Below, piece after piece: positions 1,354-56,552 of a stretch of 64,000 nt of DNA. How positions within the stretch are numbered: the stretch's first letter is position 1; each line of letters opens with the position of its first letter. The notes beneath the pieces are model-generated. The model did no database searches, was not told the DNA's origin, and saw only the letters and a program-made list of their open reading frames with translations. The DNA comes from Geodermatophilus obscurus DSM 43160 (GTDB lineage: Bacteria > Actinomycetota > Actinomycetes > Mycobacteriales > Geodermatophilaceae), in assembly GCF_000025345.1 (NCBI RefSeq), contig NC_013757.1, forward strand, positions 62,001-126,000, in the 5' to 3' direction. The translations under genes and the position numbers were made by a program.

Positions 1354-1411
1354 GGCCCCCTGCAGGGTCCCGCCACGAGCGTGTGAGTGGCGGGGGGGGC
1401 AGGGGGTCCTT
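1354..1411 (-). repeat. Stop-codon-abutting palindromic repeat, copy 1
   Basis: Minus-strand copy beginning AAGGACCCCCTGCC directly after the TGA of the enoyl-CoA hydratase gene (TGA-AGAAGGACC). It has the family structure: an outer arm pair CCCCTGC/GCAGGG, then a central inverted pair built on GCCACTC and GTGGCGGG. It lies between convergent genes and could act as a hairpin terminator, though it has no T tract. Confidence 0.8.
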
Positions 1412-1413
1412 CT

Positions 1414-2190
1414 TCAATGACCGGTGAACCGCGGAGCGCGCTTCTCCAGGAAGGCCTCGACGGCCTCGCGGTGGTCGGCGGTGCGGCCCAGGTCGGTCTG
1501 CAGCCGGGCCTCGAGCGCCAGGGTGTCCTCGAGGGAGTCGGTGGCCGCCGTGGCCAGCACGGTCTTGATGGCCCGGAGGGCGGCGGTGGGCCCGGCGGCC
1601 AGCCGCGCGGCCAGCGCCTGCGCCTCGGCCAGCACCTGCTCGGGCGGCACCACGCGGTGCACCAGCCCCCACGCGGCGGCGCTCTCTGCGAGGAACGGCT
1701 CGGGCAGCAGCAGCAGCTCCGCGGCGCGCGATCCGCCGACGCAGTGCACGAGGCGGGACGCCAGGGCCGAGTCGCTGGACAGCCCGATGCCGGCGAAGGC
1801 GGTGGTGAACTTGGCACCGGCGGCGGCCACCCGCAGGTCGCCGGCCAGCGCGATGCCGAGCCCGGCGCCGGCGCAGGCGCCGTTGACGGCCACGACCACC
1901 GGCACCCGCAGCCCGGCTAGGGCCAGCACCAGCGGGTTGTACTCCTCCTCGACCACCGACAGCGACGTCGCGGCGTCCCCGCGCAGCGCCTCCACGTGCT
2001 GGCCGAGGTCCTGACCGACGCAGAAGGCCCGCCCGGTGCCGGTGAGCACCACGGCCCGCACCGACCCGTCGGCGGCGACCTCGCGGACGACGTCGAGCAG
2101 CTCGCGGCGCGACTGGTGGGTCAGCCCCGGCCGCAGCATCGTGATCGTGGCGACCCCGCCGGCGTCCTCACGGGTCACGGTCTCGGGCAC
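1414..2190 (-). CDS. Enoyl-CoA hydratase/isomerase family protein
   Basis: A 258-residue crotonase-fold protein. The oxyanion-hole segments are A-F-C-V-G-Q-D-L (about residues 57-64) and N-G-A-C-A-G-A-G-L-G-I-A-L-A-G-D-L-R (about 104-121). The C-terminal trimerisation helices and the W-G-L-V-H-R-V segment are present, and length matches the family. The G-Q-D-L variant and overall pattern resemble PaaG-type phenylacetyl-CoA isomerases, but neighbours do not define a pathway, so only the superfamily is assigned. The GTG at 2190 is chosen because the longer frame upstream is low-complexity Arg/Pro. Two palindromes lie 39-98 bp upstream of the start and probably regulate it. Confidence 0.85.
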   Translation of the reverse strand: MPETVTREDAGGVATITMLRPGLTHQSRRELLDVVREVAADGSVRAVVLTGTGRAFCVGQDLGQHVEALRGDAATSLSVVEEEYNPLVLALAGLRVPVVVAVNGACAGAGLGIALAGDLRVAAAGAKFTTAFAGIGLSSDSALASRLVHCVGGSRAAELLLLPEPFLAESAAAWGLVHRVVPPEQVLAEAQALAARLAAGPTAALRAIKTVLATAATDSLEDTLALEARLQTDLGRTADHREAVEAFLEKRAPRFTGH

Positions 2191-2228
2191 GGTCGCCCCT
2201 CCTCGTCGTCCTCGGCGGCCCGGCGTGC

Positions 2229-2249
2229 GGCGGGATCGGCGATCCCGCC
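2229..2249. promoter_or_regulatory. Palindromic operator A
   Basis: A perfect inverted repeat: GGCGGGATC, loop GGC, GATCCCGCC. The inner 17 bp (CG-G-GATC-GGC-GATC-C-CG) differ from operator B only by one symmetric base pair on each side. It lies 39 bp upstream of the enoyl-CoA hydratase start. Confidence 0.6.
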
Positions 2250-2271
2250 CGCTCCCGGGGCCGGAAGCGTA

Positions 2272-2288
2272 CGAGATCGGCGATCTCG
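2272..2288. promoter_or_regulatory. Palindromic operator B
   Basis: A perfect 17-bp palindrome: CGAGATC, GGC, GATCTCG. Its centre is 41 bp from that of operator A, close to four helical turns, so both would face the same side of the helix. This suits a TetR-type dimer, which is an inference; no regulator gene lies adjacent. Confidence 0.6.
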
Positions 2289-54233: not shown

Positions 54234-54271
54234 GCGCGGATCCGTTCCGGAACCAGAAAGGATCCTCGGTC

Positions 54272-54296
54272 GGAGCCGTTGCGCTGTAGCGGCTCC
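54272..54296. terminator. Hairpin upstream of chemoreceptor gene
   Basis: GGAGCCG, 11-nt loop, CGGCTCC: perfect 7-bp stem, 38 bp beyond the methyltransferase stop. It may terminate that gene or sit in the chemoreceptor leader. Confidence 0.4.
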
Positions 54297-54365
54297 AGCG
54301 CCCTGCCGAACACGGGGCAACGGCGCGCACCTGGCGCGCCGATCCCTCCCCGCAGGAGTGCCGGC

Positions 54366-55952
54366 ATGGCGCGCAACCTCTGGTCCGACCGTCCCCTCGG
54401 CGTGAAGCTCGGAACGCTGGTCGCCGTCGGCGCCGTCGTCCTCGCCGTCTTCGCCCTGATCGCCATCCGGGCGCTGCAGAGCACCGAGACCACCGCGGGT
54501 GAGCTGCTCGCCAGCGCCGAGGTGACCGGGGACGTGCTGACGGCCGACATGATGCACGACGCCGTCCGCGGCGACGTGCTCCAGGCACTGGTCAGCGGCG
54601 GGCAGGGCGACCTCTACCGAGGTGCGGTCGCCGACCTCGCCGAGCACGACCAGGTCCTGCGCGACCTCCTCACCGAGATCACCGCGGACGACCTGAGTCC
54701 GGAGATCGTCACGGCGGTCGAGGAGGTGACCCCCACCGTCGACGCATACCTCCTCGCCGCCCAGCAGATCGTCACCACGGCCGGGCGCGACCCGGTGGCC
54801 GCGCAGGCGGCCTATCCCGCCTTCGGTCAGGCCTTCTCGGCGCTGGAGGACGAGCTCCCGGTGCTCGGGGACGCCGTGGCGGCGTTCGCGGACGACGCGG
54901 TCGCGCACGCGGACGCTCAGCGCGGCACCGCCATCACCCTCGCCCTGGCGGTCGCGGGCGCGGGGGTGGTCGTGCTGGCTCTGCTCGGCTGGGTGGTCAC
55001 CCGCTCGGTCGTGCGGCCGCTGCAGCGCGTCGGCGCGGTGCTGGCCGCCATGGCCGACGGCGACCTGCGCGGCGTCACCGGCGTGACCAGCCGGGACGAG
55101 GTGGGCCGGATGGCCGCCGCGCTGGAGGCCTCGATGGGCAACGTGCGGGCCGTCCTCACCACGATCGGGGAGACCACCGGGACGCTCGCCTCGGCCACCG
55201 AGGAGCTGTCCGCGACCGCCCAGGACATGACCCGGCTGGCCGACGAGTCCTCGGTGCAGAGCGGGATCGTCGCCGACGCCGCCGGTCAGGTGTCGTCCAA
55301 CGTGCAGACGGTGGCGGCCGGGTCGGAGGAGATGGGCGTCTCCATCCGCGAGATCGCCCAGAACGCCAGCGAGGTCGCCCGGGTCGCCGCCCAGGCGGTC
55401 GACGTCGCCGGGACCACCAACGCCACCGTCGCCAAGCTGGGCGAGTCCTCGCTGGAGATCGCCAGCGTGGTGAAGACCATCACCGCGATCGCCGAGCAGA
55501 CCAACCTGCTCGCGCTCAACGCCACCATCGAGGCCGCCCGCGCCGGTGAGGCCGGCAAGGGCTTCGCCGTCGTCGCCAACGAGGTCAAGGAACTGGCGCA
55601 GGAGACCGCCAAGGCCACGCAGGACATCACCGCGCGGGTCGAGGCGATCCAGGGCGACACCGAGGGCGCGGTGCGGGCGATCGGGGAGATCGCGCAGATC
55701 ATCGCCCACATCAACGACTCGCAGGGCACCATCGCCGCCGCCGTCGAGGAGCAGACCGCGACCACCACGGAGATGAACCGCAACGTGGCCGAGGCCGCGC
55801 AGTCGGCCGGTCAGATCGCCGACAACATCACCGCGGTGGCCGGCGCCGCGACCGCCACGACCCGCGCCATGACCGACGCCCGGACGGCGATGGACGAGGT
55901 GGCCCGGATGGCCTCGGCGCTCAGCGCGGCGGTGCAGCGCTTCCGCTACTAG
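54366..55952 (+). CDS. Methyl-accepting chemotaxis protein
   Basis: A 528-residue chemoreceptor. Membrane helix 1 (about 16-37), an extracytoplasmic four-helix-bundle sensor (about 40-185), helix 2 (about 190-213), HAMP (about 214-266) and the cytoplasmic signalling domain (about 285-525). The signalling tip I-A-E-Q-T-N-L-L-A-L-N-A-T-I-E-A-A-R-A-G-E-A-G-K-G (about 378-402) is fully conserved. It should bind CheW/CheA; no che gene lies in this window. ATG 54366 with GCAGGAG upstream; an in-frame ATG 87 bp earlier gives poor sequence. A repeat copy starts at its stop. Confidence 0.93.
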   Translation: MARNLWSDRPLGVKLGTLVAVGAVVLAVFALIAIRALQSTETTAGELLASAEVTGDVLTADMMHDAVRGDVLQALVSGGQGDLYRGAVADLAEHDQVLRDLLTEITADDLSPEIVTAVEEVTPTVDAYLLAAQQIVTTAGRDPVAAQAAYPAFGQAFSALEDELPVLGDAVAAFADDAVAHADAQRGTAITLALAVAGAGVVVLALLGWVVTRSVVRPLQRVGAVLAAMADGDLRGVTGVTSRDEVGRMAAALEASMGNVRAVLTTIGETTGTLASATEELSATAQDMTRLADESSVQSGIVADAAGQVSSNVQTVAAGSEEMGVSIREIAQNASEVARVAAQAVDVAGTTNATVAKLGESSLEIASVVKTITAIAEQTNLLALNATIEAARAGEAGKGFAVVANEVKELAQETAKATQDITARVEAIQGDTEGAVRAIGEIAQIIAHINDSQGTIAAAVEEQTATTTEMNRNVAEAAQSAGQIADNITAVAGAATATTRAMTDARTAMDEVARMASALSAAVQRFRY

Positions 55953-56065
55953 GAGGACCCTCCTGCCCCACCCCTCGCCGGCTGGCCTCGCCCGGAGGCT
56001 CAGCCCGAGCTTGCGAGGGCTGAGAGGGGCGAGGTCCTTCCACTGCAGGGGGCCGATCCAGCACC
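55953..56065 (+). repeat. Stop-codon-abutting repeat, copy 8 (expanded)
   Basis: Begins TAG-GAGGACCCTCCTGCCCC at the chemoreceptor stop. The centre contains an extra inverted pair (GCCTCGCCC ... GGGGCGAGGTCC; CAGCCCGAGCTTGCGAGGGCTG), then CTGCAGGGGGCCGATCCAGCACC. It extends into the stop of the convergent phosphoribosyltransferase remnant. Confidence 0.75.
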
Positions 56066-56552
56066 TCATCGGGCTGGGCGGTCGCTGCGCCGGACGACGG
56101 GTGGCAGGCTGGACCAGGGGAAGTCGATCCACCGGTGGGTCCGCCGCCACACGTAGTCGCACGGCACGACCGACTGCGGCTTCTCGTAGACCACCGCCGT
56201 CCGGACCTCGGTCACGTGCCCGGCGCAGAAGTCGCGCACCAGCTCCAGGGTCCTGCCGGTGTCGGCGACGTCGTCGGCGACCAGCACCCGCGCGCCGGTC
56301 AGGTCGACGACGTCGAGGGGCGGCGGCAGCACCACCGGGAGGTCGAGCCGCTCGTCGACGCCGGTGCAGAACTCCACGTTCATCACGAACAGGTTCGTGA
56401 CGTCGAGGGCGTAGTCCAGTCCGGCCTCCCTGCAGGGGCCCGCCACGAGCACTCGAGTGGTGGGGGGCAGGGAGGTCCTTCTACTGCTCGGCGAGCTCGC
56501 GCGCCGCGGTGCCGAACGCCTCGTACGCCAGGACCTCGCGCTCGTCGCCCAC
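56066..56552 (-). pseudogene. Phosphoribosyltransferase gene split by repeat
   Basis: A PRTase in two pieces. The upstream piece (GTG 56552 to TAG 56481) encodes V-G-D-E-R-E-V-L-A-Y-E-A-F-G-T-A-A-R-E-L, the expected N terminus of this family. The TAG is the first codon of a dispersed-repeat copy. After the repeat, the downstream piece (from about 56420) resumes L-D-Y-A-L-D-V-T-N-L-F-V-M-N-V-E-F, with the PRPP loop V-L-V-A-D-D-V-A-D-T-G-R-T-L, to TGA 56066. About 25 residues between them, normally containing the I-A-R-G-G loop, are replaced. A repeat-encoded GTG could start a truncated protein; without the first loop it should be inactive. Confidence 0.8.
56421..56483 (-). repeat. Palindromic repeat, copy 9, inside the PRTase gene
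   Basis: Minus-strand TAG-AAGGACCTCCCTGCC with inner CCACTCGAGTGCTCGTGGCGGG and right arm CCCCTGCAGGGAGGCCGG. Outer arms CCTCCCTGC/GCAGGGAGG pair perfectly. It interrupts coding sequence and supplies the stop codon. Confidence 0.9.

What the first reader, a model, noticed from the sequence alone, without database searches (positions are those of the whole stretch)
1354..56483. Dispersed ~60-bp palindromic repeat that begins at stop codons
At least nine copies (1354, 27276, 33415, 40733, 44835, 48277, 51864, 55953, 56421) share AAGGACCCC..., a GCTCGCNAGCTCGC-type centre, CCCCTGC... and CCGTTCCA. Eight start within a few bases of a stop codon, in the orientation of that gene: TGA-AGAAGGACC, TGA-GCAAGGACC, TGA-GTAAGGACC, TAG-GAGGACC. 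Outer arms covary (CTCCCTTGC/GCAAGGGAG; GGCCACCCTTC/GAAGGGTGGCC), so the hairpin is selected. The pattern fits a small non-autonomous element that inserts at gene ends and carries its own TGA/TAG, or a specialised terminator. I know of no named family with this rule.
Basis: seen in the sequence. Interest (0 to 1): 0.85.

Follow-up and report, generated by a model that had tools for sequence, protein, structure and literature searches.

The report
Hairpin repeat inserted behind stop codons
In Geodermatophilus obscurus and most of its relatives, a roughly 60-base hairpin is scattered through the chromosome (at least 150 copies in this genome), about half of the copies starting within a few bases of a gene's stop codon; this is likely a mobile repeat that some still unknown enzyme inserts there, and it would give the gene's message a hairpin at its end.

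Summary
The repeat is real. Seven of the nine listed places are full copies, one is a copy with another nested in it, and one (33415) was not recognised. The genome has the published length of Geodermatophilus obscurus G-20. A model from seven copies finds 152 copies in 1.2 Mb of this genome and matches 101 of 112 Geodermatophilaceae genomes. The stop-codon rule holds: 81 of 152 copies begin at a same-strand stop (random placement 2.5 on average, at most 9), and it repeats in congeners (58 of 108) and other genera (6 of 9). At the commonest spacing the stop is TGA in 50 of 50, and it is a gene's stop, not any TGA. Read by eye, 13 of 28 discordant orthologous loci have the same stop without the element; at 4 the element supplies it. 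Copies also nest in older copies, and one has replaced part of a phosphoribosyltransferase frame. No long target-site duplication was found, and no Y1 (RAYT/IS200) transposase in any of 108 family genomes. Best reading: a new REP-like mobile hairpin of Actinobacteria with unusually exact stop-codon phasing and an unknown mobiliser. Transcription termination is untested; no U-tract was found.

The parts
1346..1415 (-). full copy of the hairpin element, directly after the TGA of the 1414-2190(-) gene; convergent gene ends 5 nt beyond
27272..27340 (+). full copy, after the TGA of the 26578-27273(+) gene (TGA-AGA-AGGAC); convergent gene ends 4 nt beyond its 3' end
   Evidence: the orthologous site lacks the element in G040 and G062, but the C-terminus differs there
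40724..40792 (-). full copy about 5 nt after the stop of a 66-aa gene, inside the next called frame, in what looks like a thi operon (gene names recalled)
44833..44901 (+). full copy after the TGA of a TENA/THI-4 gene (44217-44834)
48274..48342 (+). full copy after the TGA of 47764-48276(+); the orthologous site in G056 is empty with the same TGA
48343..48392 (+). second, partial copy (3' half)
   Evidence: similar tandem 3' halves elsewhere
51863..51931 (+). full copy after the stop of the PMSR (msrA) gene 51210-51863(+); other sequences or other palindromes at this site in many relatives
55953..56060 (+). composite: 5' part of a copy at the TAG of 54366-55952(+), interrupted by an inverted full copy at 55977-56043(-)
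   Evidence: the gap is 18 nt and without element in G056
56416..56484 (-). full copy beginning GTAG-AAGGACC that replaces part of a phosphoribosyltransferase-like frame (name recalled from the protein sequence) and gives a premature TAG; frame intact in G056
33415..33480 (+). degenerate candidate copy after the TGA of 31357-33414(+); not recognised by the model; end approximate
   Evidence: sequence; no hit

Best explanation
It is a REP-like repeat, a conserved two-part hairpin of about 60 bases, that is likely a non-autonomous mobile element which an unidentified enzyme inserts directly behind existing stop codons, reading in the gene's direction, and into the loops of older copies. Shown: the repeat, its covarying stems, its spread in the bacterial family, its phasing to stop codons, filled and empty orthologous sites with the same stop, nesting, and no match to a Y1 transposase. 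Inferred: that the filled state arose by insertion in most cases; it is polarised at a few loci only. Inferred more weakly: that the enzyme works on folded single-stranded DNA, because hairpin loops serve as targets. Predicted and untested: the RNA hairpin, whose stem begins about 5 nt after the stop, protects the message end or slows the terminating ribosome, and is tolerated mainly at the ends of transcription units.
For: Copies: 152 in 1.2 Mb of the own genome; 101 of 112 family genomes; in an order sample of 248, 47 genomes match, 45 of them in the family. Covariation. Stop phasing: 81 of 152, null 2.5; 58 of 108 in three congeners, null 1.6; 6 of 9 in other genera, null 0.2. Of 76 stop-linked copies with a recognisable core, 50 have TGA exactly 4 nt before GGACC and none has TAG or TAA there. 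It is the gene stop and not the triplet: 51 such copies at called gene stops and 3 elsewhere, although non-stop intergenic TGAs outnumber TGA stops 3121 to 927; one of the 3 is a conserved gene end that my gene caller missed. Filled and empty sites: 13 of 28 loci read have the stop at the same codon without the element. The cleanest is B164: empty in own, G040 and G056, filled in G062, element straight after TGA, with at most about two bases changed at the right junction. A phosphoribosyltransferase frame interrupted at window 56416-56484. Nesting: 31 of 142 copies with a core, by a pattern rule. Elements sit in long codirectional gaps: 7% below 30 nt after subtracting 62 nt, against 41% of gaps without an element.
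Against: No mobilising enzyme was found: no Y1_Tnp match; reverse transcriptase in only 44 of 93 genomes, missing from many element-rich ones and present in the element-poor G007. Gain and loss are not polarised at most loci. At 5 of the 28 loci the C-terminus also differs, so nothing can be said; 4 'empty' sites hold remnants; 2 are uninformative. At the phosphoribosyltransferase locus sequence was replaced and not simply interrupted. Relatives often have unrelated palindromes at the same gene end (msrA), which fits selection for some hairpin there. Positional selection could mimic targeting. The congeners share some orthologous copies with the own genome, so one search is not fully independent.
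Confidence: 0.62

Rival explanations
1. A lineage-specific, non-canonical transcription terminator (hairpin without a U-tract) kept by selection at the ends of transcription units; copies spread rarely by recombination or gene conversion, and the exact spacing is functional.
For: Placement after stops in long gaps. Between 32 orthologous filled pairs, stem bases changed less often than loop bases (168 of 1046 against 162 of 716) and 32 of 45 double changes keep a pair. Other palindromes occupy the same gene end in relatives.
Against: No terminator-like site in window 40000-57000. In the same 32 pairs, 63 of 78 single changes break a pair. Copies between genes that are 23 nt apart (A92) or overlapping by 4 nt (B209) in an empty relative, a copy inside the thi region, nesting in loops and an interrupted reading frame look like mobility; those two empty sites leave little or no room for a hairpin.
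Confidence: 0.2
2. A translation-linked element: the hairpin beginning about 5 nt after the stop acts on the terminating ribosome (stalling or mRNA cleavage), and selection on that geometry explains the phasing.
For: Exact spacing to TGA. E. coli REPs within 15 nt of a stop are reported to stall ribosomes and lead to mRNA cleavage (Liang 2015, seen only as cited in PMC12306157).
Against: Orthologous genes without the element are common, so there is no fixed need; copies in loops and in antisense orientation have no such geometry.
Confidence: 0.12
3. A standard REP moved by a RAYT (Y1) transposase.
For: Nested copies begin G-(T/G)-(G/A)-G before AAGGACC, like the GTAG/GGAG tag; placement near gene ends as described for REPs.
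Against: No Y1_Tnp match in any of 108 family genomes, while the same search rings in 5 of 14 control genomes.
Confidence: 0.04

Closest known systems
GTAG-tagged REPs with RAYT transposases (Di Nocera 2013, PMC3733652: abstract, section 15 and passages read)
   Same: Short palindrome in many copies, downstream of genes, between unidirectional and convergent genes; close to 3' ends; termini may supply TAG; nested copies here start with GTGG/GTAG/GGAG-like tags
   Different: Larger two-part hairpin with internal loop and 10-nt apical loop; TGA-phased copies lack the tag; no Y1 transposase match in the family; 'Actinobact' does not occur in that paper
CGTC-tagged REPs (same paper, passages read)
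   Same: No dedicated transposase; many copies here carry CACGTCACC-like sequence after the hairpin
   Different: CGTC REPs have stems of up to 9 bp and, as a rule, 4-5 nt loops with a CCA tail; not this structure
E. coli REPs near stop codons acting on ribosomes (Liang, Rudd, Deutscher 2015; seen only as cited in PMC12306157)
   Same: Hairpin a few nt behind the stop codon
   Different: 446 of 4,072 predicted E. coli REPs lie within 15 nt of a stop in that survey, against 81 of 152 here at the stop itself
Mycobacterial MIRU repeats (recalled, not tested)
   Same: Actinobacterial intergenic repeats overlapping stop codons
   Different: Recalled as not being hairpin elements of this kind; no sequence comparison was made

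Membership tests
GTAG REP / RAYT system | Y1 tyrosine transposase (PF01797) in the genome or lineage | tested here: not met
   0 matches in the own genome at E 1; none in 108 family genomes at E 0.001, with positive controls
GTAG REP / RAYT system | GTAG/GGAG-type unpaired tag 5' of the hairpin | tested here: inconclusive
   Nested copies: G 29, T 20/G 9, G 15/A 10, G 25 of 31 at -6..-3; stop-linked copies instead mostly have T-G-A-R-R
GTAG REP / RAYT system | Many short palindromic, mainly intergenic copies | tested here: met
   152 copies in 1.2 Mb, 5 of 152 inside called genes
CGTC REP | CGTC tag with short stem and 4-5 nt loop | tested here: not met
   Stem of up to 21 pairs in two helices, 10-nt apical loop; CACGTC-like sequence only in a 3' tail of part of the copies
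Intrinsic terminator with U-tract | Hairpin followed by a run of T | tested here: not met
   0 terminator-like sites in window 40000-57000, which holds six of the copies
Intrinsic or non-canonical terminator | RNA 3' ends at the element | not testable with these tools
   needs RNA 3'-end mapping
MITE of a DDE transposon | Target-site duplication | tested here: inconclusive
   No excess similarity of flanks in 81 copies, which would miss very short duplications; at locus B209 TGA stands on both sides of the element, against once in the empty relative
Known Rfam family | Match at gathering score | tested here: not met
   Only a TPP riboswitch in the window

The most novel reading that the evidence does not exclude
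A mobile DNA hairpin whose insertion is aimed at functional stop codons, not at a DNA motif: its unknown machinery senses where translation or transcription of a gene ends, and it reoccupies the same stop codons repeatedly with different family members.
Probability: 0.15. Interest if true: 0.88.

Novelty: new variant of a known kind. Interest (0 to 1): 0.62.

Why it matters
REP-like repeats that move are thought to depend on RAYT enzymes. Here a whole actinobacterial family carries many such hairpins with no detectable Y1 transposase, phased to the base behind stop codons. That makes two questions testable: what moves REPs that lack a RAYT, and how a mobile element finds gene ends without breaking genes. 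If the hairpins act on RNA, they would touch the 3' ends of about 8% of genes (81 of 1,052 called genes in the sample).

Tried and rejected
Motif-only target (any TGA): rejected, because 51 of 54 such copies follow called gene stops although non-stop intergenic TGAs are more common. Element brings the stop: seen at 4 of 28 loci only. Long target-site duplication: no signal; an apparent one at locus A42 is imperfect and within the range of the controls; a duplication as short as TGA is seen at B209 and cannot be excluded elsewhere. Functional strand from G-U versus A-C mismatches: the totals lean to A-C (279 against 69 cells), but mostly at a few positions that are misaligned or carry a fixed A-C, so no strand was assigned. 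A larger autonomous element split by a gene: no split halves with complementary arms at 200-1000 nt; 5 pairs at 1000-5000 nt were not followed up. The first version of that script had a faulty pattern and found nothing; the corrected one is. Reverse transcriptase as mobiliser: patchy. Plasmid and phage carriers: no match for one copy. Terminator scan: none. Literature: no paper holds Geodermatophilus with repetitive, intergenic and palindrom; none holds RAYT, REP sequences, Actinobacteria and transposase; searches gave nothing useful. In one search the 15 loci from the minus strand were read in the wrong orientation; one search reads 10 of them correctly, 5 of 30 stayed unread. Limits: genes were called by my own codon model, which missed at least one gene end; filled/empty classes were read by eye; nested/other classes follow a pattern rule, with 10 of 152 copies lacking a recognisable core.
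Full report
What the window is. The window is positions 62001-126000 of a single-contig genome of 5,322,497 bp. That is exactly the published length of Geodermatophilus obscurus G-20 (PMC3035280, passages read). The best named relatives found with the msrA protein are Blastococcus and Modestobacter.

The observation. Seven of the nine listed copies align well. In rough consensus they read AAGGACCCCCTTGCCCCCCACC-GCTCGCANGCTC-GCGGCGGGCCCCTGCAAGGGGGCCGTTCCA: an outer helix, an internal loop, an inner helix and a conserved apical loop of about 10 nt. 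Covariation is real in the seven copies (7 pairs changed on both sides, 0 of 500 shuffles as high) and in 150 model hits (alignment fitted to the structure). 55953 is a copy interrupted by an inverted one; 33415 is not recognised by the model.

Number and range. The covariance model finds 152 copies in 1,200,000 bases sampled from three parts of the genome, the seven used to build it included; that would be about 670 per genome by proportion. It matches 101 of 112 Geodermatophilaceae genomes, with at most about 45 candidates scored per genome. In an order-wide sample of 248 genomes it matches 47, of which two lie outside the family with one and two hits. One copy had no match in the plasmid or phage collections, and the window has no Rfam match at the element.

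The stop-codon rule. With my own gene calls (1,052 genes in 1.2 Mb), 81 of 152 copies start within -8..0 of a same-strand stop; 200 random intergenic placements give 2.5 on average and 9 at most. In three congeners it is 58 of 108 (null 1.6), and in samples from four other genera 6 of 9 (null 0.2); the congeners share some orthologous copies with this genome. Of 76 stop-linked copies with a recognisable core, 50 have TGA exactly 4 nt before GGACC, and none has TAG or TAA there; TAG and TAA occur at other spacings. Over all 81 stop-linked copies the mix of TGA, TAG and TAA is like the background (P 0.59), while the base before the stop is C more often than usual (76% against 59%, P 0.002). TGA as a mere triplet does not explain the phasing: 51 such copies follow called gene stops and 3 do not, while intergenic non-stop TGAs number 3121 against 927 TGA stops. 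One of the 3 is a gene end missed by my caller, conserved in two relatives (locus B211).

Which genes. By context, 61 copies lie between codirectional genes with the element sense, 59 between convergent genes, 17 antisense between codirectional genes, 9 between divergent genes and 5 inside called genes; one had no context. Codirectional gaps with an element are long even after subtracting 62 nt (7% under 30 nt against 41%), so tight junctions are avoided. Exceptions exist: the copy in the thi region of the window, and locus B209, where the two genes overlap by four bases (GTGA) in the empty relative.

Filled and empty sites. Orthologous gaps were compared with G040, G056 and G062, whose DNA is 79-94% identical in the long aligned blocks of the first region. 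Thirty-one loci were discordant; three had gaps too long to read, leaving 28 read by eye. At 13 the stop codon is at the same codon in a genome without the element: A42, A50, A92, A97, A161, B149, B164, B167, B177, B209, B211, B216, B225. At A97 the empty genome has another palindrome; at A50 and B149 a third genome has a remnant. At 4 the element supplies the stop or shortens the gene: A98, A101, B245, B276. At 5 the C-terminus differs and nothing can be said: A73, A75, A81, B219, B284. At 4 the 'empty' site holds a remnant or a rearranged hairpin: A126, B188, B240, B244. Two are inverted or nested and uninformative: A100, B206. The best polarised case is B164: own, G040 and G056 are empty with overlapping convergent genes, and in G062 the element follows the TGA directly. 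At window 56416-56484 the element has replaced part of a phosphoribosyltransferase-like frame that is intact in G056.

Nesting and turnover. Thirty-one of 142 copies with a core lie inside another copy by a pattern rule, many of them in the apical loop; one site holds three concentric copies. Tandem duplication of the 3' half also occurs. At the msrA gene end 30 orthologues were fetched and 25 could be read: 8 carry this family at the stop (one nested, two in changed form), and 17 do not, at least 8 of these having other palindromes by eye. Between 32 orthologous filled pairs, 168 of 1046 stem bases and 162 of 716 loop bases differ; 32 of 45 double changes keep a pair, but 63 of 78 single changes break one. 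This may be selection on the hairpin, or replacement of one copy by another.

How it may move. No long target-site duplication was detected; at B209 TGA stands on both sides of the element against once in the empty relative, so a very short duplication is possible. There is no Y1 transposase match in the own genome or in 108 family genomes. Reverse transcriptases are patchy. Insertion into loops of existing hairpins resembles single-strand transposition, but the enzyme is unknown. Random insertion with strong selection for the position behind the stop is the main alternative to targeting.

What it may do. The stem begins about 5 nt behind the stop, so a terminating ribosome would meet it; E. 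coli REPs this close are reported to stall ribosomes (Liang 2015 as cited in PMC12306157). No U-tract terminator was found in window 40000-57000, which holds six copies. Neither termination nor a ribosome effect was tested.

Known relatives. Di Nocera and colleagues (PMC3733652; abstract, section 15 and passages read) describe REPs that lie next to gene ends, sometimes supply TAG, and in the CGTC class lack a transposase. The element here works like a REP but fails the RAYT test and differs in structure. 'Actinobact' does not occur in that text, and in the parts I read no exact stop phasing is given. I therefore call it a new variant of a known kind.

Noticed in passing
window 43442-43554 (-): TPP riboswitch (58.3 bits) upstream of a cytosine/purine permease-family gene, close to a thi-like operon that itself carries one of the hairpin copies.
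   Followed up: no
G000:C1:2028516 region (block B1); G040 at locus A50: The 3' half of the element is repeated in tandem (about 46 nt units), each unit able to pair with the single 5' arm, so alternative hairpins of different size are possible.
   Followed up: partly
L095, L100 (msrA ends of G062, G061); L109, L112, L118 (G005, G009, G007): Unrelated large palindromes sit at the same gene end in relatives; they may be other hairpin families of this bacterial family.
   Followed up: no
   Followed up: no
window 2597-5944 (+): Two tandem genes with 300-nt stretches 81% identical, and 12-nt and 27-nt repeats within them.
   Followed up: no
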